NCBI RefSeq assembly: GCF_010183535.1 | Contig: NC_071333.1 | Span: 20,830,587 to 20,894,586, forward strand | Length of the DNA: 64,000 bases | Source: Caenorhabditis remanei | Taxonomy: Eukaryota; Nematoda; Chromadorea; Rhabditida; Rhabditidae | Reading direction: 5' to 3' | Part shown: piece after piece, positions 20,725-56,300 of the stretch | Layout: each line of letters starts with the position of its first letter | Numbering within the stretch: the first letter of the stretch is position 1 | Translations under genes and position numbers: made by a program | The notes under the pieces: model-generated | What the model saw: only the letters and a program-made list of their open reading frames with translations | Database searches by the model: none | What the model was told of the DNA's origin: nothing

Positions 20725-20783
20725 ATGAGCAATGGGGCAAGAAGTTGGAGAGGGAGAAAATGAGGAGGCGGCAAATCGGGAGT

Positions 20784-36282: not shown

Positions 36283-36579
36283 CCAAAAATACCACAATCA
36301 AAAATAAATAAAATTAGAATTCCATAATAATCAGGTAGCAAATATAGCGAATGATTTCGACATCCATACAGTAGGACGTCTGAGTATCTGAAAAACAACT
36401 ATTGTTACCATTCAGATCCCGGTTAGAAACAAATTGGGAGGTCTCGCGACCCAGTAGGACTACTCACCTCGATATTTTGAGAGAAGACTGGAGGGATAGC
36501 GGGGAGAAGGGTTCCACGGCTGTCGAGCTTTTTCCTGTTTATTATTTCTCTGTGCTCTTCATTCCAAACATTCTAAATG
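36283..36579 (-). promoter_or_regulatory. Leader exon and interrupted cassette
   Basis: The leader exon is followed by GAGAGAAGACTGGAGGGATAGC and GTCGAGCTTTTTCCTG. It then stops at CATTCTAAATG, the target site. The missing part of the cassette resumes at 56301 on the far side of the element (AAATGTGTTTTTTTGCGTCTCG). Confidence 0.7.
36575..36579. other. Target site duplication, left copy (AAATG)
   Basis: Matches 56301-56305. The uninterrupted sequence can be seen in the paralogous cassette at 1846-1860 (AAAATGTGTTTTTTG), which supports the exact junction. Confidence 0.9.
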
Positions 36580-37372
36580 TGTTGTCAGTTTGACGCTTCT
36601 GGCATGCAACCTGCCAACTTTGTGGCCCTATAATTCCGGGTCGCACCGATTTTCCCCACAAAATCCCCCGAAATTATAGTTCCAATCTTTCTTGTCATTT
36701 ATCTCTCTTCCTATACTTCTTTTCCCCTTTTTGTTCTACTCAAAACGGTCAATTCTACCGAATTCTACTAATTTATTGCCGCGCCCCATTATTTAAACGG
36801 CGCGCGCTTTTGTCTACAGTATCCCGTTCGTCGCGGGAGTTAGATGTGCAGGCGGCGCACCGCCTTTTTAGGCCAACGCCCGCTGCACACCGCTCACTCT
36901 TCACCACCGCACTTCTACTACTTTTACGCCACGTTGCGGCCCGTTGGTGACGGATTTTTCCCCCATTTTTTCCCTTATTTTTATCCCTTTTTCTCTGTTC
37001 TCCTTCCCCTCGTTTTTCCCCTCTAAACCATCTACAAAACCTCTACAATACTCTACAAAACTCTACGAAACTCTACGAAACAGGTTTTACCTGACAGGAA
37101 GGAGAACCGAAAGGTTTCCTCGCATCCCACTAGGGAGCGAGGTTTTACTCCTACGCATTTTGCTCCACAATTCCTGTCAACGGATTTTCCCTTTCTCTTG
37201 TCCCTATCTTTCTCTTAATAAACGGGTCATTGAGAAATTGTGTACTGTTTTGTCATTTGCATAGCTTATCCGAAGGTTCTGCGGAACCGGGTCTCATACG
37301 GCGCATACAGGGAGTCTCCCTGGGTTATGACTGTGTCCTGGTCTTCGACTGGACCTACAGGCATTGTCAACA
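36580..37372 (+). repeat. 5' LTR
   Basis: 793 bp, TG...CA ended, with a short inverted terminal match (TGTTGTCA and TGTTGACA on the complement). The U3 part contains a GGCGGCGCACCGCC palindrome near 36853. AATAAA at 37217-37222 is the likely poly(A) signal, so R and U5 lie beyond it; U5 contains hairpin sequences such as GGTTCTGCGGAACC near 37274. One GCATCCCAC motif is at 37132. A CTCTACAA/CTCTACGAAA string occurs near 37040-37080. Confidence 0.97.
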
Positions 37373-37390
37373 TGGTGCATCGACGGACGG
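37373..37390 (+). other. Primer-binding site, tRNA-Gly(GCC)
   Basis: TGGTGCATCG directly follows the LTR and is the exact complement of the last ten bases of nematode tRNA-Gly(GCC) (CGATGCACCA). The next eight bases match only partly. The tRNA end is recalled from general knowledge, so the assignment is an inference. Confidence 0.75.
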
Positions 37391-40300
37391 TCTGTTTAAG
37401 GTAGCAGAACTTCGAGTTCTCCCATCTACAAGCTACATTTCGAACCCAAGTCGAACCCGCTAGCCTTCCTGGCGTCTGAGCACCCCACTTCCACGAACTC
37501 GACAAAAAACGACGAATTTCTACGATTTCCACGAAAATATACTCGATCGACAACTTCTGGCAGCCCACTGAGGCGAAAATCTACAAATTGACCGCCAAAA
37601 TTGCATCATCGGCGAGAAAATCTACAAAAAATCGATAAATCTGACATAAATATCGATAATTCTACATAAATCAGCTTCAAATCGTGATAAAATAATTTAA
37701 TACACACGAAAAGTTTTGATTCCCGCTGAAATTCTACTATTTTTGCCAGAAACTGCCACAATCCATCGAGAAAATCCGGAAAATCGAGATAAATCGTCCT
37801 CGCGACGAAATCAGTACCAAGTCCGGTCGAAATCTACAAAAAATCCTGAAAAAATCTGAAATCAGGTGTTCCCAGGCTCTTTCGGTCTTCGGTTGTCATT
37901 TTTTCCGAAAAATTCGGTCCAATTTACCCAAGAATCGATGTAAAAACATCGAAATTATTTGAATTAAGTTCAAATTATTTTCGGAGGTATACGGTCGACA
38001 ATGCGCGAGTCACTGTACGCAAACACCGATTGCGTACAATGCGCACTCGGTCGTCGACAGTACTCACCCCGAGAAGAGTGCGCCGACGCTCAAAAATGAG
38101 CGTTTTGGGCGCGAGGTGTATGCCATACACTCCACACACTCACCATTGCTCACTTTAAAAATTTCCGATTTTTTAACGAAAAATCCACGTTTTTCATCGA
38201 TTTTTTCCCCTTTCCCCACAAAATTCGATAAAAATCGAATAAAATGTTGCATCCCACAACATTAAAGGTAAGATTTGAGTTTAAAAGTACTCGAAAATCG
38301 ACGAAAATCGCTGAAAAGCGTATTCTACACGAAAAAATCGACATCCGAGCCGCAGCCCACCAATCGACGGAAATTTCTATGAAAAAGTCGCCAAAATAGG
38401 CGCAATCTACACGATTCCAGTCATTTTCACAGCCAGGAGGCTAAAAAAGTCTACGTAGCCCACAAAAATGCCGAAAATCGGCTAAAAATCGCCAAAATTG
38501 GTGAAAATTCGCGTACTCCAGCGAAACCGTCTACAAATCGGAGTGGTAACCCACCCATCTACTATAAAATTCTACTGAACCATCGTAAGTTTTCACATTC
38601 AACAAATTTCTACGAAAAATCGCAAAAATGACCGAAAAACCGGCAATTTTGCTAAAAATTCCCCATCGGTACCAAAAAAAACGGATCGATCGGGGTAGAA
38701 CGGCCTCCCAGGTGAACGCGTGGCCGGAAAAATTTCCGAAAAGCCAGGGAGCAGCCCACTAAGAGCCAAAAATGGCTGAAAATTTACTTTTCTGATGTAC
38801 TTGTGCTGAAAAATGCCAAAAATTCTGAGAATTCTTAAAAAAAGGAATATCCAGAACAGTAAATTATCGATTTTACAAGGCGAATTGCTGCCCAAAATTT
38901 CAAGAATCACCAATTTCTCACTGAAAATTGTTTTCGAAAATTTCGAAAATCAATAAAAACTCGAAAATCGATACAAATCGAGACGAACTGATTTCAATTC
39001 ATTCAATAATGAATATAATCGGAGCATCCCACCCTTTTAGGGGAAGCAATGCCCAAATTTCGACAAAAATCAGATAGTTTTCAGTGAGAACGTGATTTCG
39101 AAAAATTTCGAAAATCCAGAAAAATTCAAATCGATAAAAAATCGATTTTATAATGATTCTTATTCATTATTTCAATGATTTCAATCGGCGCAACCCACAT
39201 TTCGAGGGGAACCTATGCCCGATTTTGACCAGAATCCAGAATTTCTACGAGAAATTTATTTCGAACATTCTCGAATGTCTTTAACAACAATTCCGAATAG
39301 TGTAAAGACTCAAATGATTCTGACTCATTGAAATAATGCATCCCACAAGCAATTCGCCATAGTTTGGCAAAATTTTGATCGATTTCGTATCCGATCAGCC
39401 AGATTTCACTAAAAATTCAGTTGAAAATTTCGAAAGATCGATAAAAATCTTCGGCGTTAGTAATTCCGAAGCTCCAAGAGCCTAGCAATCAATAAAAAAG
39501 TGAATGCCAAGGCTGGCGAAGCAAAATTTTGTAAGATTTGCAGCCCACACATCAGAAATCAGAAATATTTGGCGGAAAATATTCGAAAATTTCCAAAAAA
39601 TCGATAATACTCGGTTTGAATATTTTCTAAGCACTCTTTCAAACACCTTTCATAGCCCAAAGGGCATGACGAAAAGCATTTTTGCTAGGGGAGGTGCTGC
39701 CCAAATTTTCATTTTTTTTTTCTAAAAACTTAGAAAAATCCCCAATCTAAAAACTTTCGGTTGATTGGCTGAAAATTTGACGGAAAATATTGGAAAAACT
39801 TCGGAAGGTCGGTAATACCCGATCAGAATATTTTCATAGCACCCCACAAACGTTAAGCATAGCCAAAAACGGCATGCCAAAAAGCAGTTTTACTAGGGGA
39901 AGTGCTGCCCAAATTTTCATTTTTCTGAAAACTTAGAAAAAATTCTAATCTGAAAAAACAAGTCAGATGAGATTTGGCTGAAAATATCGGAACAACTCCA
40001 AAGAGATGATAACATCCGACTTAAATATTTTCATAGCATCCCACAATCACTAAGCATAGCCAAAAACGGCATGCCAGAAAGCAGTTTTGCTAGGGGAGGT
40101 GCTGCCCAAATTTTCATTTTTTCTAAAAACTTAGAAAAATTTCCATCCTGAAATTCGGATAAAAATTTTTTCTTTTGTGGAGTTTTTAATCTACATCAGA
40201 CTTCCCCACTCAAGGAAGCATCAGAGCCTCATAAGGTTACTCGCAACCCACTTTTTATCGACAACCCAGAAAAATTCACTGAAATTTCTAAAACCTTTTG

Positions 40301-40716
40301 GAACCATACCAATTGGTAATAAGCCAAAAAGTGATTCTGACTGTCTATATTGACTCAAAATTGATTCTAAACCGAATCCAAAAGGACTAATAGTTCTCCG
40401 AGTTAAAAATACCGGAGTTATTGATCAGAATTCACCAATTTCGATAAAAAACTGTCAATCTAGATATTCCAGCAAAGAATCTCTGTGACTAAAAGCATTC
40501 TATTGAACACAACGGCAATATAAATACGATTGCTTACATTCTTTTCGATGCACAGAATTCAGAATTTTGGCTAGAAATTGTATTCTTTATATATGCATAT
40601 CACCTTTGCTGGATATTCAAATACTTCCTGAAAATTTCCTTCTTAAAAATGCTACGCGATCTCTTAAAAACTCTCTTATCTCTCCATAAAACATTCAAAC
40701 ATTACTGTTCTTCCAG
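37391..40716 (+). other. Long 5' leader with degenerate repeats
   Basis: About 3.3 kb with no gene-like frame. It is dense in GCANCCCAC (12 exact copies between 37480 and 40243) and in CTACAAA/CTACGAAA and AAAATCG words. A module of about 200 bp with GCTAGGGGAGGTGCTGCCCA recurs at about 39685, 39892 and 40090; older copies with AGGGGAAGCAATGCCCAAAT occur near 39043 and 39205. A strong splice donor AAAG|GTAAGA lies at 38267/38268, so much of the leader could be intron. It may hold packaging signals, but nothing in the sequence proves this. Confidence 0.6.
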
Positions 40717-40717
40717 A

Positions 40718-41438
40718 ATGTCCTCAACGCCCCAAGCCATCACTTTCGAGCAGCTCGTCAAGGAGTGCGGTGATCTCTACAGCACCCTCCAAGCAACCGC
40801 CGAGAAGGTGAAAGAAGATTTCGCAGCGATGCAAGTCGCTGTTGAGAAGATCATCGCTGAACAGGAAGAGAAAGAGAACCAGGGAGACAGCGGCATCCCA
40901 CAAGGAGACGTTCCAGAAGAAAAGAAAGAGAAGGCAGTCCCACTCTGGCCGATGGCACCGATGGTCCAAATCGCCGTGGCGATCGTTGAAATCGAGCGCA
41001 CCCACCACATCACCATCGTGATGGACACCACCCCATACGAGTTTGGAAATCGAGCTGCCCCGAACCAGTTGTTCCAGGTCAAGAACCGGACTGTAATGAG
41101 AAAGAACCCACTCGAGGAGGAAGATCCATTCCCTTCCGCTTCATCAGGAAAGCCAGTGAGTTAACCTAAACGTAACTATCAACTTAAAATTAACAAGTAT
41201 CTTCTTCCAGAAGAAATCGGCAAAAATCGCCAGTGGATCCACTCAGGTGTGGACGCGTCAGACGGCAACCCGCAGACTCCGTTGCAAGTGCAATCCCGCA
41301 TATCACGGAGACACTCGCTGCCAGCACCATGACAAGCTGATGTGCATGGCCCATGGTATCGGTGCAGCCCTGGCGGAGATCATTTGGCAAGGACAGCCCG
41401 TCGAAGGAGTCGTCCTCCCGGATGACCTCTTCGCATAA
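40718..41438 (+). CDS. Accessory gene A: coiled-coil, Cys/His protein
   Basis: Two exons, 40718-41155 and 41211-41438, give 221 residues in phase. The ATG is one base after a TTCTTCCAG acceptor, so the mRNA probably starts there by cis- or trans-splicing. Residues about 8-60 are a likely coiled coil (LVKECGDLYSTLQ, AVEKIIAEQEEKE), followed by an acidic linker and a hydrophobic stretch (MVQIAVAIVEIE). Exon two has a compact Cys/His cluster, CKCNPAYHGDTRCQHHDK then MCMAH, that could hold one or two zinc ions. An AATAAA lies at 41542-41547. No family was recognised. The layout of coiled coil plus C-terminal Cys/His recalls a small Gag, which is inference only. Confidence 0.8.
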
Positions 41439-41721
41439 ATTCTCTTACGTCTGGCATCCCACTTACACATACTTGTTACTTTTTACTTTTATTTTCTGTT
41501 GTTGTTACTGTTATAACTTGTTGACCTATGGCAACCCACTGAATAAACTCAATTGATTAATACCTGAATGAACCTAATTGGTCAATAAATAATTGATTTA
41601 TAATTATAAATACAAATGCTCAGTTATTGTTTTACCTATCAAGGATGAAAAAGACCTGAAATCTTACTCTGTTGCTCTACCCGTCATGCCCAAATTTTCA
41701 TTTTTTCCAACGTGTTTTCAG

Positions 41722-43348
41722 ATGTCATCATCAAACACCCAACCAATCATTGAGCCAACTGCATCCCCACCACGTGAGGAAGCACATCAGCAGCCCACTA
41801 TTGAGCCGAAGGACTCTACCGAATCGTCGGATGAGTCAGACCGTGAGATCCAAGAGGACTCGGATGTCATCGAAGTGGTACCAGATGCTGAAGCTGAAAA
41901 GAAAAAGGAAAAGAAAGAGGCACCCACTAGACAGAAGGAGTCTAAGAAGATCAATACTCCAAAGACAGACAGCAAGAGAACTGCTGAGCAGCATGAGGAT
42001 GGAAAGGACTCAGCGGGAAGCCCACAAGCTCCAAAAAGGCTCCGCCTGGAACCTTCATCAGGGTTCTCGGTCCCCATGACACTTGTTCCATTGAACACTG
42101 AAGGTAAAAATAATCAACAGAGTATTCAGTTAGAATATCATAGCAAAAGACCTAAACTAATATGACATGTAAGAGAACAATCATGACGTGGTTTCAGATG
42201 TCACCAAACAGCTGATGGATTTCCAAAGAGAAATCGTGGAGCTTCTCAGAAGAGAAATCACCGATCTGAGGGTGGAACTTCGCACCAACAAAGAGGAGAA
42301 CAAGCGACTCGCCCGGAAGTACGAAGAACTGCTAAAGAAGTACAACGAGATGGTGTTGAACTCGGAGAAGTTGACGAAGGATGTATGGGCGTCACTCGGA
42401 AAAACGCGACTGATCGCTAAAGAGTACGAAAGTATTATCGAGAAATCTGAGAGATCTCTGCTAATCAACAGCAGCGCCCTACACGAAGTCCAAAAGCAAC
42501 ACACCGAGATCAAACACATCCTCAGCTGCATCGAAGTTCCGAGCTATTCTGTTGCCTTCAAACAAATTGTGCAAGAAGAATCGAAGAGTACGGAGACCGC
42601 AACGGCATCCCACACCTCTCGACGGGAGCGAAGCCCATCTACATCCCCACCACTTCCGGCACCAAGCCCGATCCGATACAACCTGGGAACTCCGAGCTAT
42701 CATTCGTCGAGGTATTCCATAAACTCGATGGCAGACCCGGAGCCAATCCCACGATTCGGGACACCCGAAGATCTTGATCGCATCCCACGTCCAAGTGAGC
42801 AATCCGGTTCGGAGAAGGTGACAGCAGCCCCACCACTATCAACCACAGTCAAAACAGCTGTCAAGCAAGACAAAACGTCTAAAAGACACGTAAGTACACA
42901 CACTACAATAGAATTTCAATAAATAACTGTCGTTCTTACAGTGTCCATTCTGCAACCGATCCAACCACAGCGCTACAAACTGCCTCGATTTCCCATCAGC
43001 GGCATCCCGCAAGACAGCGCTTATCCAACAAAATCGCTGCCCACGTTGCTTGGAGCTAAATAACTTGCCAGGATCAATGCACGAACCTTGTCCAAGTTCA
43101 AATCGTGCGTGCTCGATTTGCAAGGATGATTTTTACGGAGAGAAAAATAAGACCGGAGCCTTTCATCACCCGGCCATCTGTCCCAAATCGCAGCCCAAGC
43201 CATCCGGCAAGCCACCCGGCAGAGCAGGATCCAAGCACCCACGAAGCAGACGAGTAAGAACTGACCACACTATATATAACAAAACAAAATTGATAACTGG
43301 GAATTGTTTCAGGGACGCATGCCATCTCCGGCACGACGCCGCCACTAG
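41722..43348 (+). CDS. Accessory gene B: Gag-like zinc-knuckle protein
   Basis: Four exons (41722-42103, 42198-42889, 42942-43253, 43313-43348) give 473 residues with all phases consistent. The ATG directly follows GTGTTTTCAG. Residues 1-127 are acidic and Lys-rich with a possible nuclear signal (APKRLRLE). Residues about 135-230 are a long coiled coil (LMDFQREIVELLRREITDL, RKYEELLKKYNEM). A Ser/Pro-rich region follows. Exon three begins with a perfect CX2CX4HX4C knuckle (CPFCNRSNHSATNC), then CPRC, H, C, CSIC and HHPAIC. This is the extended Cys/His pattern seen near the end of BEL/Pao Gag proteins and in this element's own gag. I infer a second, diverged Gag or RNA-binding protein. AATAAA at 43480-43485. 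Confidence 0.8.
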
Positions 43349-44483
43349 GACCGTGGCATCCCACAATTGAGCCATCAGCTCTGTCTATTGTTTGGCATCC
43401 CACATCAATCATTGTTCTGTTGTTTTTTGTTTTGTTATTAAATCTTATTTGTTGATCTTTTTATTGTAGTGTCCACCAGAATAAAAGTAAAAATTTTTTT
43501 TTGGACCATAACCCTACTATTCTCTACTTATTAAATACCCACGAGTCATATTACTCGATTAATATATGATCTACTATTACTTGCTATTATTTATACGACT
43601 GTGTCCCCTGGAATGTGACCCATAATGACTGGAAAGAAACAAACATCTACAAGCACAAGAAATTCTACGAAAAAACTACATAAGATCTACAGATAAAGAT
43701 AGGAATAAATCCACCAACTGTGACTCGGTAGAAGAGTCGGGTGACCCCTATGGACAGGGAAGCCCTCAATCTAAGAACACATAATAGTGTCGAATCATAC
43801 AATCCCAGTATGAAAATTAGACAGATTGCGATACTTGAAGTATTCTATCAACGAGACTAGATTCTATGACTTCCAGCATCTTGCTAAGGACCGGAGAGTA
43901 TCTGTTTCCGGCCAGTCACAGATACAAAAAGAGGATTACACCAGGCTGACCTATTATAGTGGCAGTATGTCAGGCAGCCCACAAACATCTACACGTGTAA
44001 ATCCTTGGCTCTATTACAACATCCAATACACCTGGATCACTGAAAAATGATCAGTTTAGTGAATTCAACAGTATCCCAATTAATAGTGCAACCCGCGAAG
44101 TAAAGAGCTGAGGACAGTAGTATCTACAATCGAAAATAATAATACTGAAAAGTTTCTACGTCCTTTTAATTTGACAATTCGATCGTTGAGAGACGTTTCG
44201 ATGTGAAACCAAATTCTACAATTCATTTCCACTAATTCATTTCAAAAACGTGTTGAAATAAACTTTAAAACGGCATACTAGCCCAGAAACCCGTATCAAA
44301 ACGACACGGTAGCCCCAATACAATAGTACATAAGTTGATTCAAAGTAGAATAAAGCAGTTAAAAGAGTAAATACACTCACATCTGCATTCTCAACAGGCC
44401 AGAGCACCCCTGTAAGCCACGTCCACGGGATCAGTCGAAAAAAGAGATCCTCGACAAAATTGTACTACTATACAATTCTTACA
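43349..44483 (+). other. Spacer between genes B and C
   Basis: Contains poly(A) signal AATAAA at 43480, several GCATCCCAC or GCAGCCCAC copies (43356, 43395, 43974) and CTACAA-rich stretches. A 74-codon open frame at 43826-44050 has no splice or composition support. The spacer ends in TTCTTACAG, the acceptor for gene C. Confidence 0.5.
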
Positions 44484-44489
44484 GCCAAA

Positions 44490-46971
44490 ATGGAGCCCAA
44501 CCCAGCATTGGACATTCAACCAGAGCCACCAGCACCCCACCAGCAGGAGGCACCGACGTTGCAACCCACCAGAGAAATTCCTCTTCGCATCCAGCACCCC
44601 AAATACTCAGTGCTCCATTACGGAGAAGTAGCCGGCCCAGGGGACAGAAGGCGAAACAAGCCTAACAAATTCAGAGTTCAAAGCTTCCATCAGTTCACCG
44701 GCCAGGCATTGCCGGTCCCAGATGACGTACTGAGAACCTGGGCGGAATATGAAGGCGAATGGGCGGCAAACGATGTTCCTCCACTGATATTTGACTACGG
44801 ATGCCTACGTCTACAAGTCTGGAAACAGTCTATTCCTGACCCAGCAACCCACTTCGATGAAGTCTCAAAGAGAATGCCTTTTCTCGCGACTCTTCCAGGA
44901 CTGCAAATCTGGTTTCTTCGAAACGTCAGAGGTACCCAGGAAGTTAACCATCTGGAAGCGGGCGGATCCGGAAGGTGTCAACTATGTGGATCAAATTTGT
45001 TGGGCATCCCACTCTCGAACCACCACCACTCCAATTGTATATTTCGCCACCTCGATCGACACACTCTCATGCAATTCATGTCGATCAATCACTTGGCGTT
45101 CTGCCCGTATTGTGGCTCTCGCAGCGCAACCCACACCATCGCAGAATGCATGCAGCGTGAAAGCGCCTGCCGTCAGTGCGGCGCGGTTGACCACATGGAA
45201 TGCCAAAAGTTATGCGAATCAGTCGGAGTGGACCCAATGACAGCCGAAGAACAAAAGACCCGAGTAACTCAATATCGGCGTGAATACTACGAGCACTGCA
45301 GACGTCTAGCTGAAAGAGGCGAACTTCGGTACAGAATCATTTCTGACGCAACCCACCCCTACTACAGTAGAAGAATTATCGAAGAGAGTTTGCATCCCGC
45401 CGGTTGGGGTCTCTTCCTGGACTACCAAAGAGAGTATCCACAAATTCCACGAATACGGTATCAGACTACCCAGCTGTACTCGGGTTTGGTCACACCGGAA
45501 TCAGACGCAGCATGGTCGAATGAATATCCAGTGTTTCAACCATCAGAGATGGATGAGATCGAAAGGCTACAATGGAGAGTGGACGAAATCCGTTTCGGAC
45601 GCCAAGTGAGTTAACATTCTACTTTAATCTACCTTGAGCTATTGCTCTGTTTGGATCTACATGATCCATGAACTCAGTGAATCAACTTATGTACACGATA
45701 AGTTACAGACCAGATTCAACCGTACAAATCCGCATCCCACCTACACCATCAACGAGTTCATCGGACAACGATCCCGCATTCGTGAAGAACGTCTGCAAGC
45801 CCAAAGGGCTCTCAATGAACCGATACTGCCGGTGATCGTTGACGACTGGAGTGTAGAAATGAACGAAGAACAACGAGTAAGACTGATCTGATAAATTCAG
45901 ATCCAAAGAGCAAGAACAGGATAATTACTCCTTAATTTCAGCAGGAAGAGGTAGCCCAACAGCACCCACCACTGGAGGAGCAAATCCCCGACGACATAAG
46001 TCAAGAAGACGACATTGAGGCCCATTCAGAAGAATCCAATGCGTCGAGTTCTGCCGACTCCAATGTGTCCACTTCTGACAACTCAAATGAATCCATCGAA
46101 GACTCCAATCGTGAAGATGACTCAGAACCCGTCGAATCTTCTATGTCATCGGTGGGTTGAAATAGTAGATCACACTAGTATTGATCCATACTATTCAGAG
46201 TGATTCTCGGGATAACGAAGAGCCAGCAGTCCCTCCGGCAGTAGAGGAGCCAGTCGCCGTACTTCCAGCCGCATTCCCACCAGAAGTACGGGAGCCCGTA
46301 GAAGCTCCAGCAGTTGTGGAACCTCAAGTTGAAGCTCGACCAGTGGTGGAACCTTCAGCAGAAGCCCAACCAGTAGTCCCACAAGCGGTCAGTGATAAGA
46401 CACGCAATTGAAACAACATTCCATTCTTTGTTTTCAGGACATCTTCCACACGGAAGACAGTCAGTGGGATATCGTTCGAGAGGCCGAGCAAGAGAGACAA
46501 TTAGCTCTGACGGCGGCCCGAATCTCGAGCTATCGAGATCGAACATTGGAGGTACTCTCGGCGGCAGACGACCTCGACCTTCTTGCTGCGAATAGCATCC
46601 CACTGGACCCACAGAACTTGCGAGACCGAATCGCGTGGCAAGTGCAAACAGTCACAGGCAGAAGGATTGAGGAAGAGATGGAAGCATATCCACAATTCAT
46701 TCTTCGCGACTACGCTCGCATGCTAACCGGAGTGCTACGTACTGTCGCCAAAATTCGCCGTGTTCAACGAGTCATCAGTATCCATTTCACACGCTGCGAT
46801 GAGTCACTTTACCTGAATGACCATGGTCACCAATTGTTCATTCCGACACTTGCACTTTTCGCCAGGATTCCATTTGACGATCGTCAAGCTCGTCTCATCC
46901 ACAACTGGGAACAGCTAACGGAATGGCTGGTTACGGATGGCAACTCGGGATGTCGAGTTGCTCTCCAATAG
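44490..46971 (+). CDS. Accessory gene C: large Cys/His protein
   Basis: Five exons (44490-45605, 45709-45876, 45942-46151, 46199-46387, 46438-46971) join in phase to give 738 residues. The ATG lies five bases after a TTCTTACAG acceptor. A Pro-rich start is followed by a globular region (residues about 60-160), then three Cys/His groups at about 168-250: CQLC with HHHSNC, CPYC with H and C, and CRQC with H, C and C. Residues about 270-425 are globular and Tyr/Arg-rich. Exons three and four are low-complexity, first Ser/Asp/Glu-rich, then Pro/Val/Glu repeats (VEPQVEARPVVEPSAEAQ). The last 177 residues form a helical domain (REAEQERQLALTAARISS, RDYARMLTGVLRTVAKIR). No family was recognised. Zinc-dependent nucleic-acid binding is a reasonable guess only. 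Confidence 0.8.
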
Positions 46972-48283: not shown

Positions 48284-48324
48284 GGTACTGCTTTTCAACG
48301 TTCGAACGAACAACAACTTCAACC

Positions 48325-50694
48325 ATGACGCTTACGGAGACCCGTAAGCAGATCACGAACTTGAGAGCCCTCCCAGATCAGGTCAACTCGAGTAAGGTGC
48401 ACCCACTCGTCCTCGAATCGGTCAATAAAGACAAATACTTGGAGGAAATGGACAATTACCTTGCCAAGACCCAGTACTTGACAGCCATCTCCACCTGCAC
48501 CGAACTGATCAAACAGATCGAGGCCGAGTTGTCCGAACATGGTCAACCAGCCAGCCCATTTGACGAAAGTATCCACGACGCCAACACGGCAGTCGAACAA
48601 TTGGGTTTGCTCGTTATCGACCCACAAACGGGAGACCTGATCGAAGAGGAGGGGGATCCCATTGAAGACATCATTGACCAGCTCACTGAGGAGCTAGCAG
48701 AGACGAATCTACTCGCTGAGTCATTAAAAGATGCTAGTGAAAATAATGATGGTGATGCTAAAGATCTAACGCCACTCGCAAAAACCGAGATTGAGCAACA
48801 GCATTCATCAGTGGAAGAGGCGGCATCCCACTCGGCGGACTCTAATATGAATGATAGACTGGAAGATTTGGAAACCGATATGGAGAAAGCCATATTAGAG
48901 CGCCAAGGAAAACTTGCCGAAGGAAAAAGGCTCCGAGATGAGATAGCTATGAAGAAGGCTGCGTTTGCGAACAGGGGCGTCGCAACACCTTCGCCAACTA
49001 TTTCCATCAAAGAGAACAAATCGACAGGGCAAACTCTTCCCAAAAATGATCACAAGCATCCCACAATGCACGAGACACAGCACTCGGCAGAGCAATCTCA
49101 GGTCAACAACATGAGAGTCATAGCAACTCATTCCCAAGAATCGCTTCTCTCCGAACCGATTCAATCACAACTACTACAACATATCTCACGACTTGAGCAA
49201 CACGTCGAAAAAGAAAAGTCAAATCAAAACAAATTTATGAACTCAGTGAGCGCCAACTTTGAAAAAATCTTCAATACTTTGAAGAAAGACAATAACAGAG
49301 CCAAGAATACTCGCCTGGACTCTGATGATGATATCACATCATCAGAAGACGAGGACGATTACGCCAGGAGATACATGGAAGGGTGCAACCCACGCGATGA
49401 CAAATCACGTGATAAGAACCACCGCATCCCACATTCTACACCTAAAAAGGCACCAACTCACCTGAAAAACGTCACATTCGACAGTGTCAAGTCAAATCTG
49501 GTCACTTTTGATGGCTCAGACGATTTCCAAATCTTTCGCAATACCTTCAACGACTACGTCACCCAGAACCCCAACATCTCCAAAGACCACAAATGGGTCC
49601 TATTAAAGGGTCAACTGAAAGGAAAAGCTGCGAAGTGTCTCTACAGCTTAGACGACCCGGAAGAAGCAGTCCGCCTCACATTCAATGAACTCGAAACCAA
49701 ATATGGGAAGAAGAGTGACAGAATGGAGTTGCACAACAAACTCGCAAACCTCCCATTTCATCCAACCGACCATCACCGAATGGAAGACGACTTGCGAGAG
49801 CACAGAAAAATCCTCAGCCAAATGAAAGGCCGAGGCATGAATGTAAACGATGAAATGATCATCAAGCATTTCTGTGTGAAACTTCCCAGAGATATCAGAA
49901 AGCAAATAGTCTCAATGATCAATGAATATAAAGACAGACTGACTTTCGATATGGTTCATGACGCAGTACAGAGAGGAATCTCAGAGCTACAAACTGAGGA
50001 GTCCTTCTTTGAGTTATCGACTCGGCAGAGAATTCAAAACGAAATCCCAGCCGCTATCCACGCAATGGATGCTCAACAATCGCATCCCACAGGAAACTAC
50101 TACAGAAACAACAACTACCAACAGTTCAACAGCAACAGTAACGGTACACGCAACAGTAGCCAGACCGGTGGCGTTCCACGACAGGGTTCACGGCAACCCA
50201 CTGACGGGAATTTCCGGAATAATTACCCACAGAATAACAACTACGCTCAACGAGCTAAGCCACAGTTATCTTCGAATAAAGTTGTAGACACCTCCGGCGT
50301 CACACTCGACGAAAACTACCAGCCAGGTCACTCGGGGATCAATCTGAACATTATCAGATACTCATTCCCGTTCAGTAAGCCGGAAACACAATCGACATGC
50401 AACGCCTGTAACCAGCCCCACAACGCAATCCGGTGCCCGCTACCAAGTGGAGAGTTTAGACAAGCGCTGAAACAAAAAGGTCTGTGTGAGCTGTGCACTG
50501 GCAAATCCCACAAAATTGAGAACTGTACTTCGAGATACATGTGTGGATACTGTGGGGGACGCCATCACATGGGAGCATGCCCACAAAAAGAGTACTACAG
50601 AGTTCCAGCCAATCTCCCATCGAAGATTGGACCAATTGTCACAGAAGAGAGAAAGAAATTTTTTCGTGGCTACTCACGAAACTCAACTCATTAA
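48325..50694 (+). CDS. gag: Gag polyprotein of the BEL/Pao element
   Basis: 789 residues from the ATG at 48325, which lies 42 bases after a TTTCCAG acceptor; an in-frame upstream extension to 48199 is likely untranslated. The N-terminal part (to about 350) is helical and acidic with coiled-coil stretches (LEDLETDMEKAILERQGK, LLQHISRLEQHVEKEK). Residues about 375-560 look like the DUF1759 capsid-type region (VTFDGSDDFQIFRNTFND, LKGQLKGKAAKCLYSL). After an Asn/Gln-rich linker come Cys/His knuckles from about 692 (CNACNQPHNAIRC, CELCTGKSHKIENC, CGYCGGRHHMGAC). Gag should assemble the particle and bind element RNA. The frame is intact and overlaps pol by about 209 bases in another frame. Confidence 0.92.
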   Translation: MTLTETRKQITNLRALPDQVNSSKVHPLVLESVNKDKYLEEMDNYLAKTQYLTAISTCTELIKQIEAELSEHGQPASPFDESIHDANTAVEQLGLLVIDPQTGDLIEEEGDPIEDIIDQLTEELAETNLLAESLKDASENNDGDAKDLTPLAKTEIEQQHSSVEEAASHSADSNMNDRLEDLETDMEKAILERQGKLAEGKRLRDEIAMKKAAFANRGVATPSPTISIKENKSTGQTLPKNDHKHPTMHETQHSAEQSQVNNMRVIATHSQESLLSEPIQSQLLQHISRLEQHVEKEKSNQNKFMNSVSANFEKIFNTLKKDNNRAKNTRLDSDDDITSSEDEDDYARRYMEGCNPRDDKSRDKNHRIPHSTPKKAPTHLKNVTFDSVKSNLVTFDGSDDFQIFRNTFNDYVTQNPNISKDHKWVLLKGQLKGKAAKCLYSLDDPEEAVRLTFNELETKYGKKSDRMELHNKLANLPFHPTDHHRMEDDLREHRKILSQMKGRGMNVNDEMIIKHFCVKLPRDIRKQIVSMINEYKDRLTFDMVHDAVQRGISELQTEESFFELSTRQRIQNEIPAAIHAMDAQQSHPTGNYYRNNNYQQFNSNSNGTRNSSQTGGVPRQGSRQPTDGNFRNNYPQNNNYAQRAKPQLSSNKVVDTSGVTLDENYQPGHSGINLNIIRYSFPFSKPETQSTCNACNQPHNAIRCPLPSGEFRQALKQKGLCELCTGKSHKIENCTSRYMCGYCGGRHHMGACPQKEYYRVPANLPSKIGPIVTEERKKFFRGYSRNSTH

Positions 50695-53600
50695 CTCTCT
50701 TTCCAGGGCAGGCGCGGAAGCTAAGTCATTGCTTCACGTGCCACAATCTGCCTTGCCACCAGACTCCCGAGCTACTAGCTCACACAATTGTTCTACTAAT
50801 ACCAATCAACCCCCCGACTCTTCTCTCAAAACCGTTCCCACTGTTACTGTTTCTACTAACTCCACTGTTGTTTCTTCAAAAACATTTATCTCTACGGACT
50901 CGACGCCGAGTGAAAACCAAGAATTTCTCAAATTCCTATCCCAAACTACACATCATGTCAATCATGTTGCCACACCAAAACATGACGAATCAGACAGAGA
51001 TTACAAGCTACCATTCCTGTGCTTACACAGTCACGAAGGCAAGCCCATCAGAGCTCTTGTCGATACAGGTGCAACCCTCTCTATGATCGATCATACTGCG
51101 GCAGATAAACTGGGATTTGAAATTCTTGGTACCACAAACATCACTGTCACCGGCTTCGATTCCACTGTTACTATCCCCTCTAATGCCTATAAGGTCCCCC
51201 TAAAGAGTAAATACTCAACTACACCTGTCACAATCAGAATAGCTGGCTCCCCTCAACTTCCACCCACTCGTTTTCGCGCTCCTATCTTGAGCAAAAAAGA
51301 TCTACAATACATCCAAGAACTGAATATTCCGAAATCAGAACTCAATGCATCCCGAAATCAAACAGGCAAACGGATTGACCTAATTTTAGGCAATGATGTC
51401 ATAGCCTGGTTCAACTCTCTAGCTACCACAACCAGACACATTCTACCTTCCGGAAGGCTGATGGAAACATCTCCGTTCGGGTTCATCGTACACCCCACTC
51501 CAGATTTGGGTCTGCTCATTCAAGCAACCCACAAACTCAGTAACACTTCGGTTGATCTGGACGATGAGAATTACATCATGACTCTCATGGACTACTCAGA
51601 TCCCGAAGATCCATTATCGAGACTAATTGCGGAAGTGTGTCAAATGTGGAATATCCAAAACCTTGGAGCAAAATCTCCAGAGCTAGATGAGACCTTCAAA
51701 AAGGAACAGCGTGATCTGATGGACGAATTCAATAGAAATGCGAAATATAACGAGAAGGGAGAGTTTGAAGTTGCACTCCCATTAAACGGCAACGAAGCCA
51801 GACTAGCCAACAACTATGAGATCGCTATCAAACGACTCATCCATCTAATTGTGACCCTCAAAAAGGGCACCAATCTTCTAAAGCAATACAATGATATCAT
51901 TCAAGAGCAACTTGCGAAAGGTATCATTTCCAAAGTAACCCCACAAATGATGGAGGAAGAAAGGAAACGAGGACAAGTGGTTTACAATATCCCTCACAGA
52001 GGAGTTGTAAAATTATCATCAATGACCACAAAACTCCGCATTGTGTACGATGCGTCGAGTCACAAAAGAGACCAGCTATCACTAAATGATTGCGTTTTTC
52101 CCGGCCCTTCTATCCTCCAGTCCATTTTTGGTATTCTCATCCGAGCTCGAATGTACAAGTACCTGGTGATCGCCGACATTGAGAAGGCATTTCACCAAGT
52201 ACAAATGCAGGAACAATTCCGAAGTCTAACTCGCTTTCTCTGGTTGAAAAACATTGAGCATCCCGCAACTCCGGACAATATTGAAACATTCCATTTCAAT
52301 AAAATCCCATTCGGACTTGCATGCAGCCCTTTTTTGTTGGCGGCGGTTATTCATTACTTTTTGGCAAAGAACCCAAATAAGTTGAATGATATGACAAGAG
52401 AAAATCTTTACGTTGATAATTGTCTGTACTATACCAACGACAAGGGAGAAATCCCTGAAATAGTCAAAGCCGCCAAACAAATTTTCGATGACATGGATAT
52501 GAATTTGCGAGAATTCATTGTCAACGAAGCTGAGGAGATGATGAAAATTCCAGAAAAAGATAGAGCGGCATCCCTCTCGGTAAAAGTCCTCGGATACCTT
52601 TGGAGCTCTAAGGAAGATACCTGGACTATTAAAATTGCTAATCTTGAAGAATCCCACCCCACAAAAAGACAAGTAGCATCCCGCTTAGCGGAAACATTCG
52701 ACCCCCTTGGGCTGGTAACACCCATTCTCGTAGGATTCAAAAGACTAATGCAAAATTGCTGGCTAGACGGTGTCAAGTGGAATGAACCACTACCGCCACA
52801 ACTACTGTCCGATTGGCGCAAAGTCCAAGAACAGTTTAAAGATGAAGAGATAGTAATCCCACGAGAACTAACGCCCGCCTACAACTTCCTCGATGTTCGG
52901 CTAATGGTGTTCTCTGACGCATCTAAAGACATGATGGCAGCCTCAGTGTACGCGTTATACACATTCGAAGACAAGCATCCCACTATCTCCCTCATCTGCA
53001 GCAAAAACAAAATCAGACCATCCAAAAACGAGAAATGGACCATCCCCAAGTTGGAACTCATGGCAATTGAAATTGCTACAAATCTTGCCGTCGCCACCGT
53101 CAACGAAATCCGCCTACCAATCACAGAAGTCTGTTTCTTCACTGACTCTGCATGTGCCCTGTTCTGGATTCTAACCAAAAAACTCACGAGACCATTCGTA
53201 GCCAATCGCGTTGAAGCAATTCACACGAATAAAGATATACTGACTAAACAGAATATCGAGGAGGTCAACATACGACATTGTCCCACAAAAGATAATCCAG
53301 CAGACCTCGCAACGCGAGGAATGAGTACTTCAGAACTACAGAGCAGTTCACTATGGTTCAATGGACCAGCATTTTTGAAGACAGACAGAAGTGAATGGCC
53401 AACCAAAATTGAAGGCGTTAGCGAAAATATCAAAGAATTTCAAGCTCTCGTATTCTCAGAAGTAGTAGATCCAACTACTAAGAAGAAGAAAAAGAGCATG
53501 CTCCCTCTTCCTACTCCAACTAAACCTTCTGAAACAGAGACTATTCTGACGGCATCCCACGATAGCAAGTTCCAATCGATTGTCCCGTATACTAAGACCA

Positions 53601-55561
53601 ACTCGATGCGAAAACTCGTCTCAACCATGCATTCTGCCATGAAATTCCTTGTGCAGAGCAACCCACATCATGAGTGGCAGAGCTACATCATGAAAGAATT
53701 CGTCCGTTGTAAAGAAACATCCCCTACAGCTAGAAGAAATCTAGCTAGAACATTCGTAATTCAGCAACACTATCTGGAATGCAAAAGTCAGGGATATACG
53801 TTCCCACAAGACATGAACGCGTATCAAGACCAAGACGGACTGTACCGCTACAAGAGACAAGTCAGATCGAAAGTACTCCCACTGGAAGCTCGAGAACCAA
53901 TTCTCATCCACTCCAAACATCCATTAGCCGAATTGATAATCCGAGAGACTCATGAAATAAATGGTCATCTCCCAGAATCGTATACTATCAGCGCAGCCCG
54001 CACCAAATACTGGGTCCTGCACGACCGTCAGATTGCGGGTAAAGTCATCGCAAATTGTGTGCAGTGCAAAAAAGTAAATGGCTTACCATTTGCATACCCA
54101 CATTCACAGGCACTCCCACAATTTCGAACGGAACCATCCACACCGTTTGAACATTCTGGAATCGATTATCTCGGCCCAATCATGTACACTAGAGACGACG
54201 GCTCTTTGAGCAAAGCTTTCATTCTGATCTACACGTGTCTAGTCACCCGTGGAGCCCGCTTAGAGATAATTCCAGACGGAACAGTCGAGAGATATCTCGA
54301 AGCCTTGTCCATTGTCTTCTCCCGATCTGGTGTCCCGAAAACCATCTATTCGGATAACGCCAAGACATTCCAACTTGGTGAAAAAATCATCAATGAAGAC
54401 ATTGCGGGAGATGAAGCGTCGGAGTCCTTGACAAGCTTTCTAGCCAATCAGGAGATCGACTTCATCTACATCACCCCTCTTGCCCCATGGCAAGGGGGCA
54501 TCTACGAACGCATCGTCAAGCTGGTCAAACATCAGCTGATGAAAGAAATCGGAGATATGAAACTGGATTTCCAAGGCTTACGGCGAGTACTAGCAGGAGT
54601 AGAAGCGATGATTAATAGCCGACCACTGACACCACACCCGAAAAGACCGAATGATATGGTGGCGCTACGCCCCATTGACTTCCAGTTACCGGCAGCCCTC
54701 ATAGACCTCCCCTTCAATACTAAACCGTTCGAACCCACTCAGTCTAAGACTGAACAGAGAACGCGAGCCCACCTCGAACAATACGAGAACGTATTAGAGA
54801 GGCTATGGAAAGGTTGGTCACTCGGATATCTTCTTCATCTACGAGAATCCAAACACAAAAACAAGAGGTGCTCCAGGATACAACCAACAGTGGGTCAGGT
54901 GGTAATCATCAATACGAATCTCGTCCGTCGCCAGAAATGGCCACTTGGTCTCATCGTCAAAATCTGTGAAAGTAAAACTGGAGAAATCAGATCCGTAATC
55001 GTGAAATGTAAAGGAAAACTTTACAAACGTGCTGTATGTCAACTGATCCCACTCGAGATCGAGACACTTAACAACGAAAATTGTCCAAAAGATCAAAAAG
55101 ATACGGAGACAGACCCACGGTACAAATCTAAACCAATACCTCCATCTCCCGCAATCTTTGATATTCCCAATGCACGATACTCACCCAGTTACTTTACAAA
55201 CAGCAATGACGCATCCCACCCAGACGCAATCCCACACACTGCTGAATTACCCATTATCGGTGAAAAAGTCGTCGACGAAGAAGAAATTGACTATGATCTA
55301 CACGATCTGGAACAAGAAGACGATGATATGGTGACCAGTTATCAAGATCCAAACGCTCCCGCAGCCCACAGACTTGATATAATTGATCAACCGATCCTGC
55401 ACCCACACAGAGCTCGTGAGTACCTTCCACGGAAGGCAAAGGCTCCATACGTGAACTACGTGCATCATATGACTGTTCGTCATCTTTCTTTTTCTGGGCC
55501 CCCGGAGTGTTGTCAGTTTGACGCTTCTGGCATGCAACCTGCCAACTTTGTGGCCCTATAA
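50486..55561 (+). CDS. pol: Pol polyprotein: protease, RT, RNase H, integrase
   Basis: An open frame of 1691 codons, +1 relative to gag. The part before about 50707 overlaps the gag knuckles and is probably not the real start, since CTCTTTCCAG at 50698-50707 offers a splice acceptor. In order: retropepsin (ALVDTGATLSMI near residue 190, DLILGNDV near 304), reverse transcriptase (IADIEKAFHQV near 565, FGLACSPF near 612, catalytic box LYVDNCLYY near 642), RNase H (VFSDASKD near 808), integrase with an HHCC-like zinc region (HEINGH, CVQCKK near 1190) and DDE residues near 1226, 1289 and 1340, then a small barrel-like C-terminal domain (LVRRQKWPLGLIVKI). The last 17 residues are encoded by the 3' LTR. 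No nonsense codon or frameshift. Confidence 0.95.
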   Translation: MSCALANPTKLRTVLRDTCVDTVGDAITWEHAHKKSTTEFQPISHRRLDQLSQKRERNFFVATHETQLINSLSRAGAEAKSLLHVPQSALPPDSRATSSHNCSTNTNQPPDSSLKTVPTVTVSTNSTVVSSKTFISTDSTPSENQEFLKFLSQTTHHVNHVATPKHDESDRDYKLPFLCLHSHEGKPIRALVDTGATLSMIDHTAADKLGFEILGTTNITVTGFDSTVTIPSNAYKVPLKSKYSTTPVTIRIAGSPQLPPTRFRAPILSKKDLQYIQELNIPKSELNASRNQTGKRIDLILGNDVIAWFNSLATTTRHILPSGRLMETSPFGFIVHPTPDLGLLIQATHKLSNTSVDLDDENYIMTLMDYSDPEDPLSRLIAEVCQMWNIQNLGAKSPELDETFKKEQRDLMDEFNRNAKYNEKGEFEVALPLNGNEARLANNYEIAIKRLIHLIVTLKKGTNLLKQYNDIIQEQLAKGIISKVTPQMMEEERKRGQVVYNIPHRGVVKLSSMTTKLRIVYDASSHKRDQLSLNDCVFPGPSILQSIFGILIRARMYKYLVIADIEKAFHQVQMQEQFRSLTRFLWLKNIEHPATPDNIETFHFNKIPFGLACSPFLLAAVIHYFLAKNPNKLNDMTRENLYVDNCLYYTNDKGEIPEIVKAAKQIFDDMDMNLREFIVNEAEEMMKIPEKDRAASLSVKVLGYLWSSKEDTWTIKIANLEESHPTKRQVASRLAETFDPLGLVTPILVGFKRLMQNCWLDGVKWNEPLPPQLLSDWRKVQEQFKDEEIVIPRELTPAYNFLDVRLMVFSDASKDMMAASVYALYTFEDKHPTISLICSKNKIRPSKNEKWTIPKLELMAIEIATNLAVATVNEIRLPITEVCFFTDSACALFWILTKKLTRPFVANRVEAIHTNKDILTKQNIEEVNIRHCPTKDNPADLATRGMSTSELQSSSLWFNGPAFLKTDRSEWPTKIEGVSENIKEFQALVFSEVVDPTTKKKKKSMLPLPTPTKPSETETILTASHDSKFQSIVPYTKTNSMRKLVSTMHSAMKFLVQSNPHHEWQSYIMKEFVRCKETSPTARRNLARTFVIQQHYLECKSQGYTFPQDMNAYQDQDGLYRYKRQVRSKVLPLEAREPILIHSKHPLAELIIRETHEINGHLPESYTISAARTKYWVLHDRQIAGKVIANCVQCKKVNGLPFAYPHSQALPQFRTEPSTPFEHSGIDYLGPIMYTRDDGSLSKAFILIYTCLVTRGARLEIIPDGTVERYLEALSIVFSRSGVPKTIYSDNAKTFQLGEKIINEDIAGDEASESLTSFLANQEIDFIYITPLAPWQGGIYERIVKLVKHQLMKEIGDMKLDFQGLRRVLAGVEAMINSRPLTPHPKRPNDMVALRPIDFQLPAALIDLPFNTKPFEPTQSKTEQRTRAHLEQYENVLERLWKGWSLGYLLHLRESKHKNKRCSRIQPTVGQVVIINTNLVRRQKWPLGLIVKICESKTGEIRSVIVKCKGKLYKRAVCQLIPLEIETLNNENCPKDQKDTETDPRYKSKPIPPSPAIFDIPNARYSPSYFTNSNDASHPDAIPHTAELPIIGEKVVDEEEIDYDLHDLEQEDDDMVTSYQDPNAPAAHRLDIIDQPILHPHRAREYLPRKAKAPYVNYVHHMTVRHLSFSGPPECCQFDASGMQPANFVAL

Positions 55562-56300
55562 TTCCGGGTCGCACCGATTTTCCCCACAAAATCCCCCGAA
55601 ATTATAGTTCCAATCTTTCTTGTCATTTATCTCTCTTCCTATACTTCTTTTCCCCTTTTTGTTCTACTCAAAACGGTCAATTCTACCGAATTCTACTAAT
55701 TTATTGCCGCGCCCCATTATTTAAACGGCGCGCGCTTTTGTCTACAGTATCCCGTTCGTCGCGGGAGTTAGATGTGCAGGCGGCGCACCGCCTTTTTAGG
55801 CCAACGCCCGCTGCACACCGCTCACTCTTCACCACCGCACTTCTACTACTTTTACGCCACGTTGCGGCCCGTTGGTGACGGATTTTTCCCCCATTTTTTC
55901 CCTTATTTTTATCCCTTTTTCTCTGTTCTCCTTCCCCTCGTTTTTCCCCTCTAAACCATCTACAAAACCTCTACAATACTCTACAAAACTCTACGAAACT
56001 CTACGAAACAGGTTTTACCTGACAGGAAGGAGAACCGAAAGGTTTCCTCGCATCCCACTAGGGAGCGAGGTTTTACTCCTACGCATTTTGCTCCACAATT
56101 CCTGTCAACGGATTTTCCCTTTCTCTTGTCCCTATCTTTCTCTTAATAAACGGGTCATTGAGAAATTGTGTACTGTTTTGTCATTTGCATAGCTTATCCG
56201 AAGGTTCTGCGGAACCGGGTCTCATACGGCGCATACAGGGAGTCTCCCTGGGTTATGACTGTGTCCTGGTCTTCGACTGGACCTACAGGCATTGTCAACA
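55508..56300 (+). repeat. 3' LTR
   Basis: 793 bp, offset exactly 18,928 bases from the 5' LTR. By eye the two LTRs are identical over every block compared, and open frames inside them translate identically. The pol stop codon is at 55559-55561, inside U3. The sequence before the LTR (TCTGGGCCCCCGGAG) is a poor polypurine tract. Confidence 0.97.

What the first reader, a model, noticed from the sequence alone, without database searches (positions are those of the whole stretch)
37132..56068. GCANCCCAC motif repeated about 45 times across the element, one strand only
By eye I count about 45 exact copies (for example 37132, 38249, 39024, 40892, 41453, 42605, 43356, 45004, 46595, 48823, 49424, 50082, 53552, 55211), mostly with T, A or G at N, plus near matches ending CCCGC. 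Chance predicts less than one per strand. Copies lie in the LTR, leader, introns, spacers and all three coding frames (reading ASH, GIP/RIP or HPT/QPT), so selection or spread acts on nucleic acid, not protein. None was noticed in the 44 kb of flank. It could be a binding site for an element protein (the Cys/His products of A-C are candidates), an RNA export or packaging mark, or a defence-related tag.
Basis: partly seen in the sequence, partly recalled or inferred. Interest (0 to 1): 0.93.

Follow-up and report, generated by a model that had tools for sequence, protein, structure and literature searches.

The report
Private RNA word repeated through retrotransposon
A jumping element in a roundworm genome carries the same nine-letter word about every 400 letters, always on its message strand and even inside its genes; three of the four other families of the same kind that I could examine carry a different word of their own, so the word looks like a family address that the element's own machinery reads.

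Summary
GCANCCCAC occurs 47 times in the element (36580-56300), all sense; chance predicts 0.47 for the whole window, both strands. The element is a young 19.7 kb BEL/Pao LTR retrotransposon, probably of Caenorhabditis remanei. Its genome is held, so I tested relatives. Nine related elements, six without pol, carry 234 more copies, all sense; the 281 copies reduce to 58 distinct positions. Copies are kept better than other 9-mers (178 of 193 against about 96 expected) and exceed synonymous-codon shuffles in gag, pol and one further ORF. Three of four other Pao families sampled around RT carry a different word: YCCGCGG, CCCGCCG or ACCGCT; the fourth shows none. Two sister families (70% identical pol) share no word start column. 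Best reading: a family-specific sense-strand recognition word in genomic RNA, read by the element's Gag for selective coating or packaging. The word and selection on it are shown; the reader protein and its purpose are inferred. Closest known analogue: VANC target motifs of Arabidopsis VANDAL transposons, which are DNA-bound, noncoding and tandem.

The parts
36575..36579 (.). 5-bp target site duplication AAATG (partner at 56301-56305)
36580..37372 (+). 5' LTR, 793 bp, identical to the 3' LTR; motif copy at 37122
37373..37386 (+). primer-binding-site-like stretch directly after the LTR, beginning TGG; tRNA not identified
   Evidence: PBS rule recalled
37373..40717 (+). noncoding leader; 12 exact motif copies: 37480, 37560, 38249, 38352, 38751, 39024, 39190, 39338, 39540, 39839, 40036, 40243
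40718..41438 (+). gene A (2 exons by eye, 221 aa, Cys/His-rich end); motif 40893; motifs 41454 and 41531 just downstream
41722..43346 (+). gene B (4 exons by eye, 473 aa; one CX2CX4HX4C knuckle plus further Cys/His clusters); motifs 41790, 42605, 42780; 43356, 43395, 43974 in the following spacer
44490..46971 (+). gene D (5 exons by eye, about 738 aa; CCHC-like clusters); motifs 44532, 44561, 44844, 45004, 45126, 45348, 45732, 46595; then 46982, 47050, 47495, 47959 in the spacer
   Evidence: first exon searched
48325..50691 (+). gag (DUF1759; three C-terminal CCHC knuckles by eye); motifs 48823, 49056, 49385, 49424, 50082, 50193
50692..55561 (+). pol (aspartic protease, RVT_1, Peptidase_A17, Integrase_H2C2, DUF5641; open frame from 50471); motifs 51524, 52975, 53552, 53658, 55211, 55361
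55508..56300 (+). 3' LTR; motif 56050
37122..56058 (+). the 47 exact sense-strand GCANCCCAC copies taken together (about 1 per 420 bases); 7 further GCANCCCGC

Best explanation
The word is a family-private recognition site in the element's genomic RNA. It is kept at one to four copies per kilobase along the whole transcript and read as single-stranded sense sequence by a protein that the family encodes, most likely Gag. Many weak sites on one RNA would give high total affinity, so Gag would coat and package its own 20 kb RNA, and the RNAs of its pol-less relatives, in preference to host RNAs and to the RNAs of the many other Pao families in the same genome. Shown: the word, its strand, its spread through coding and noncoding sequence, its maintenance, its presence in pol-less relatives, and different words in other families. 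Inferred: RNA and not DNA as target, Gag as reader, packaging or coating as purpose.
For: 47 sense and 0 antisense in the element. 234 sense and 0 antisense in nine relatives; together 58 distinct positions, so orientation was chosen many times and not copied once; beyond the nine bases there are only weak preferences. Synonymous shuffles: pol 6 v 0.48, gag 6 v 0.41, ORF 44349-45611 6 v 0.81, 0 of 1000 reaching the count. Conservation both ways above the 9-mer control: 166 of 225 v about 108 and 178 of 193 v about 96. Pol-less relatives N1-N5 have stretches not alignable to the window with 33 copies in 11.8 kb, among them six distinct positions without a window counterpart; 82 of their 84 alignable copies are kept in the window element. 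Other families have other words, with no shared start column between sisters beta and gamma. The Gag body is matched in all nine relatives.
Against: No binding data. The word has no special RNA structure or accessibility (native 0.549 v transplanted 0.614 unpaired, p 0.06). The Gag frames of N1-N6 show no CCHC knuckle, so if the knuckles read the word they must act in trans. In yeast Ty1 up to 5 kb of internal sequence can be deleted without significant effect on transposition (PMC4974528, passages), so packaging need not use internal sites. Family epsilon has no detectable word in its pol region. In family beta the core CCGCGG is a palindrome, and 3 of 11 hits of YCCGCGG are antisense. In window-family locus L009 the gapped word is matched by 3 of 25 shuffles. 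The link between word and Gag could not be tested because beta, gamma and delta gag sequences could not be fetched.
Confidence: 0.45

Rival explanations
1. RNA-level export or stability tag: an element-encoded adaptor (A, B, D or a Gag isoform) binds the word to export long unspliced RNA or shield it from germline small-RNA silencing, as CERV is needed for export of Cer1 genomic RNA.
For: Sense-only. Several Cys/His proteins are encoded. CERV of C. elegans Cer1 is required for gRNA export (PMC10309623, passages).
Against: Genes B and D are unmatched in E1-E3, and A, B and D in N1-N5, yet the word is kept; the adaptor would have to act in trans.
Confidence: 0.22
2. VANC-like DNA tag: an element protein binds the word in double-stranded DNA and blocks silencing over the whole element.
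For: Closest published pattern: private 9-mers, high density, same orientation, different between related families (PMC5735166, passages).
Against: VANC motifs lie mainly in noncoding regions and often in tandem repeats, where one orientation comes free by duplication. Here most copies have unrelated flanks (58 distinct positions) and many lie inside coding sequence by codon choice. A duplex-DNA binder gives no evident reason for 58 to 0.
Confidence: 0.15
3. The reader is a host RNA-binding protein or host RNA, and families tune to different host factors.
For: The words share a CC[AG]C-like core across families (by eye). The nonautonomous copies would need nothing of their own.
Against: Different flanks and word sites in sister families fit co-evolution with a family protein better.
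Confidence: 0.12
4. The word is read on the minus-strand cDNA (GTGGGNTGC) during reverse transcription, for example by nucleocapsid coating or as multiple plus-strand start sites.
For: Strand-specific. G-rich complement suits knuckles of the HIV type (recalled).
Against: No purine-tract character. No data.
Confidence: 0.05
5. By-product of base composition, codon use or recent spread without function.
For: The element has a sense-strand A and C excess. Three sets of window copies are related by duplication: the two LTR copies, 39024 with 39190, and 39839 with 40036.
Against: Shuffles keeping dinucleotides or codons never reach the counts. Conservation above control.
Confidence: 0.01

Closest known systems
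VANC target motifs of Arabidopsis VANDAL transposons (Hosaka et al. 2017, PMC5735166; PMC10398659; passages seen)
   Different: VANDAL: mainly noncoding regions, often tandem repeats, bound as duplex DNA; a DNA transposon (recalled). Here: LTR retrotransposon, also in all coding frames by codon choice, mostly not tandem, orientation kept across independent sites.
Multiple dispersed packaging signals of RNA viruses (PMC6281560, passages seen)
   Same: Many degenerate sites with one shared recognition motif spread along a genome, proposed to be read by the coat protein.
   Different: Those are motifs presented in secondary structure such as stem-loops. Here the word is linear with no structural preference and strict in sequence.
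Cis-acting regions of Ty1/Ty3 (PMC4974528, passages seen) and retroviral Psi (recalled)
   Same: Cis sequence that lets Gag pick its own RNA.
   Different: Confined near the ends; up to 5 kb of Ty1 internal sequence dispensable. Here the sites run through the whole element.
Cer1/CERV of C. elegans (PMC10309623, passages seen)
   Same: Nematode LTR element with an extra protein acting on its own genomic RNA.
   Different: Cer1 is another LTR lineage (recalled); no repeated RNA word appeared in the passages I saw.
DNA uptake sequences with dialects in Neisseriaceae (recalled)
   Same: Short private word scattered through genomes, with dialects between relatives.
   Different: Read as DNA in transformation by bacteria.

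Membership tests
BEL/Pao LTR retrotransposon (ICTV Belpaoviridae) | Pao-type pol: Peptidase_A17, RVT_1, integrase, DUF5641; DUF1759 in gag | tested here: met
BEL/Pao LTR retrotransposon (ICTV Belpaoviridae) | two LTRs TG...CA with short target duplication | tested here: met
   identical 793 bp LTRs, 5-bp AAATG
VANC/VANDAL target system | private short word dense in one family only | tested here: met
   (against four other Pao families sampled round RT; whole genome counts show background copies elsewhere)
VANC/VANDAL target system | word mainly in noncoding regions, often tandem repeats | tested here: not met
   23 of 47 copies lie in my coding models, 24 if the acceptor puts 45732 in exon 2; only three sets of window copies are related by flank
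VANC/VANDAL target system | element protein binds the word as duplex DNA | not testable with these tools
   needs EMSA or ChIP
Dispersed RNA packaging signals | many copies of a shared motif along the genome | tested here: met
Dispersed RNA packaging signals | motif presented in secondary structure | tested here: not met
   no difference from transplanted copies beyond p 0.06
Dispersed RNA packaging signals | capsid or Gag protein binds it | not testable with these tools
   needs binding assay
Retroviral Psi | packaging site near the 5' end | tested here: inconclusive
   densest in the leader (3.6 per kb against 1.25 per kb in pol) but present throughout

The most novel reading that the evidence does not exclude
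Coexisting BEL/Pao families in this nematode each write their own 6-9 base address through their whole genomic RNA, using synonymous codons where they must, and a co-evolving family protein reads it so that each family sorts its own RNA, and that of its pol-less parasites, from the rest. Sister families switch to a new word and rewrite their sites.
Probability: 0.5. Interest if true: 0.93.

Novelty: new variant of a known kind. Interest (0 to 1): 0.85.

Why it matters
How retroelements recognise their own RNA among many relatives is usually ascribed to structured sites near the 5' end (recalled). A short, strict, linear word spread over 20 kb and different between families would be a readable self/non-self code. 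It would predict reader specificity, explain how pol-less copies are mobilised, and make co-evolution of RNA word and RNA-binding protein testable across several natural families in one genome. The words are also simple markers for finding nonautonomous elements.

Tried and rejected
Chance and base composition: rejected. Codon bias or peptide repeats: rejected by synonymous shuffles. Hairpin-presented motif: the LTR copy sits in a hairpin-like context, but as a class the copies are not more accessible than transplanted ones. The accessibility run, and the accessibility part, used a pairing sum that exceeded 1 (negative values) and are discarded. Regular spacing: rejected (gap CV 0.89 against 0.97 random, 29% of simulations as low). 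A word in family epsilon: none beyond shuffles (L024 62 and 32 of 150, L025 35 and 13 of 150; L024 7 of 25; L026 and L027 not run). Mined words could be selection artefacts, so the best word of the real sequence was compared with the best word of synonymous shuffles: beta, gamma and delta loci pass with 0 of 150 at 6-mers and 0-1 of 150 at 7-mers. Of the window family L009, L010 and L012 pass with 0-1 of 150, but in the gapped test L009 does not (3 of 25) while L012 does. Split halves agree for beta, gamma and delta; L010 recovers part of its word from its second half and not from its first. A first count of 63 distinct positions by flank similarity alone was too high; adding alignment positions gives 58. 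Genome counts for TCCCGCCGAA are inflated by 58-60 bp tandem arrays on C2 and C4, so for gamma I rely on pol loci only. Homologues: gag finds two C. remanei proteins among the 7986 candidates scored, the first exon of D none, gag no solved structure.
Full report
Observation. GCANCCCAC occurs 48 times in the window: 47 on the + strand between 37122 and 56058 and one on the - strand at 61058; dinucleotide shuffles give 0.47 on average for both strands. The 47 copies fill one element. Its LTRs are 36580-37372 and 55508-56300, identical over 793 bp, with a 5-bp duplication AAATG, so the insertion is young. Pfam names the pol as BEL/Pao: Peptidase_A17, RVT_1, Integrase_H2C2, DUF5641, with DUF1759 in gag. 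Upstream of gag lie a 3.3 kb noncoding leader and three extra genes by my eye-made models: A 40718-41438, B 41722-43346, D 44490-46971, with Cys/His clusters. The species is probably Caenorhabditis remanei: the genome has 130.47 Mb and gag matches the partial protein CRE_05286 at 94% identity over 56% of the query.

Sharpness. Single-mismatch neighbours of the word number only 23 on the sense strand and 1 on the antisense, and 10 of the 23 are at position 8. The N position is free (T 25, A 12, G 7, C 3) and beyond the word there are only weak preferences, such as A after it. A ranking of all 9-mers puts GCATCCCAC first (24 against 0.1 expected, one LTR left out).

Relatives. In the same genome three full relatives (E1-E3; RT 95-97%) and six LTR-bounded relatives without an RT match (N1-N6) were fetched, each in two pieces. 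Sense and antisense counts: E1 23/0, E2 27/0, E3 27/0, N1 22/0, N2 25/0, N3 23/0, N4 24/0, N5 23/0, N6 40/0; the word read backwards gives 0-2 sense and 0 antisense in each. The nine account for part of the 41 LTR matches; the other matches were not examined as elements, though some of their 3.8 kb loci hold 1-6 copies, and four of the 20 (L036, L037, L042 and none other) show one antisense copy beside 2, 2 and 4 sense ones (L032, L033, L043 and L044 are - strand matches whose copies all read as antisense in contig orientation). The antisense copies of L036, L037 and L042 lie in loci that include host flank, and I did not place them. Genome-wide the word has 739 + 594 matches against 431 + 426 for the backward control, so most copies elsewhere are background. 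Clustering by flank and by aligned position reduces the 281 copies of the window element and the nine relatives to 58 distinct positions, 44 with a window member and 14 without (flank alone gave 63). The similarity threshold is mine.

Maintenance. Window copies alignable to a relative keep all eight fixed bases in 166 of 225 comparisons, against about 108 expected from non-motif 9-mers in the same alignments and about 112 from C-rich 9-mers (sums over nine relatives). The other way, 178 of 193 copies of relatives are kept in the window element, against about 96 expected: E1 17/21, E2 20/24, E3 20/25, N1 14/14, N2 19/19, N3 16/18, N4 17/17, N5 16/16, N6 39/39, controls 0.37, 0.37, 0.37, 0.41, 0.54, 0.39, 0.55, 0.36, 0.83. 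Relatives are not independent of one another. In E1-E3 the excess in the first direction is modest (15/29, 19/29, 17/28 against 0.35). N1-N5 have stretches not alignable to the window with 8, 6, 5, 7 and 7 copies in 2662, 2016, 2013, 2458 and 2672 nt (the lengths include short flanks and some sequence that is merely diverged). Six distinct positions there have no window counterpart, so the word also exists in sequence that the window element lacks.

Coding. With amino acids and codon usage held, the word is still in excess: pol 6 v 0.48, gag 6 v 0.41, ORF 44349-45611 6 v 0.81, with 0 of 1000 shuffles reaching the count. Density is 3.6 per kb in the leader and 1.25 per kb in pol, as expected if coding limits it.

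Other families. RT loci of 4.2 kb were held for 16 copies of other Pao families (lower-ranked families of that list were not fetched). They hold no GCANCCCAC and at most one GCANCCC[AG]C (8 of the 16 loci are shown), but beta, gamma and delta have their own words: beta (L013-L019) YCCGCGG, 8 sense in 4.2 kb; gamma (L020-L022) CCCGCCG, 7 sense and 0 antisense; delta (L023, L028) ACCGCT, 17 and 19 sense and 0 antisense; epsilon (L024-L027) none. The copies compared within a family are 95% or more identical, so these are three families, not twelve cases. Synonymous shuffles: beta 8 v 0.58 and 8 v 0.51, gamma 7 v 0.33 and 7 v 0.34, delta 19 v 3.3 and 10 v 1.7, 0 of 1000 each. To pay for mining, the best word of the real sequence was compared with the best word of shuffles: 6-mers beat all 150 in the beta, gamma and delta loci run; epsilon does not (L024 62 of 150, L025 35 of 150). 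A gapped search finds GCANCCCAC unaided in L012, TCCCGCCG in gamma, CCGCGG in beta and ACCGCT in delta, 0 of 25 shuffles as good each; in L009 it finds GCANCCC, but 3 of 25 shuffles do as well.

Word sites between families. Beta and gamma pol are 70% identical, yet their 8 and 7 sites share no start column; the nearest pair is 6 columns apart (1898 and 1892) in a variable stretch where a window-family site also starts (1888). Delta, with up to 19 sites, shares one start column with beta (395) and one with gamma (1157). At one conserved peptide (ATRGM) beta spells its word by codon choice and gamma does not.

Whole elements of family beta. ATCCGCGGTT has 234 genome matches against 98 for the backward control, of which the first 100 places are listed. 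Groups of five or more sites in that list: C3:14753221-14771457 9 - and 2 + round a - strand RT; C4:1665766-1676161 7 + and 1 - round a + strand RT; and five groups of about 5-10 kb without an RT match, each on one strand: C4:1384216-1393684 8, C4:2018372-2023189 5, C4:2923302-2932677 7, C4:5549745-5559157 8 and C2:8425446-8432796 6 sites. A smaller group at C1:1032534-1034991 is mixed (2 + and 1 -). So the beta word also runs outside pol and probably in pol-less copies, mostly in one orientation. For gamma the genome list is swamped by satellites and delta was not tried.

Mechanism. One orientation at many independent sites, inside and outside genes, without special structure, is what a reader of single-stranded sense RNA would leave. 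A reader that differs by family is most simply element-encoded. A, B and D are unmatched in some relatives that keep the word; the Gag body is matched in all nine, although the N copies show no CCHC knuckle. I therefore favour Gag, acting in trans on pol-less relatives, with coating and selective packaging as the purpose. Everything after 'reader of sense RNA' is inference. The words share a CC(A/G)C-like core, by eye.

Known systems. VANC proteins of VANDAL transposons read private 9-mers arrayed in one orientation, mainly in noncoding regions and often in tandem repeats, as duplex DNA (PMC5735166, passages). Dispersed packaging signals are described as secondary structure elements (PMC6281560, passages). 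Ty1 tolerates loss of up to 5 kb of internal sequence (PMC4974528, passages). Cer1 needs CERV for export of its RNA (PMC10309623, passages). In the listings of eight library searches I saw no report of private dispersed words in LTR elements; most listed papers were seen by title and start of abstract only, and that library lacks most subscription journals and preprints.

Noticed in passing
36579-56300: A second sense-strand word, TCTAC[AG], 48 sense and 4 antisense in the element; TCTAC is dense in LTR, leader and the spacer at 43.5-44.2 kb, and the E relatives show TCTAC 14-18 against 2 in 4.2 kb of pol. Not tested against synonymous shuffles.
   Followed up: partly
L056, L058, L060, L062, L064, L065: Six pol-less relatives keep a Gag body frame that ends before the CCHC knuckles; in L064 the frame is interrupted.
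   Followed up: partly
17782-21599 (- strand): A non-LTR retrotransposon with Exo_endo_phos and RVT_1 domains and an upstream 271 aa frame; its top 7-mer CTGATAT is 6 sense and 0 antisense, not tested against shuffles.
   Followed up: partly
39567-40141 and 47812-48114: Three 170-nt and two 148-nt direct repeats in the noncoding parts; two motif copies (39839, 40036) sit in the leader repeats.
   Followed up: no
G000 C2:17425401-17426803, C4:2272242-2272551 and others: Arrays with 58-60 bp spacing that contain TCCCGCCGAAA, close to the word of family gamma; relation unknown.
   Followed up: no
41722-46971: Genes B and D have no match in relatives E1-E3, which are about 5 kb shorter; the first exon of D has no detected homologue.
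   Followed up: partly
37105-37145: The LTR copy of the word lies in a hairpin-like stretch (CCTCGC ... GCGAGG by eye); the word there is kept in all nine relatives.
   Followed up: no
L036, L037, L042: One antisense copy of the word each beside 2, 2 and 4 sense copies in 3.8 kb loci that include flank; not placed.
   Followed up: no
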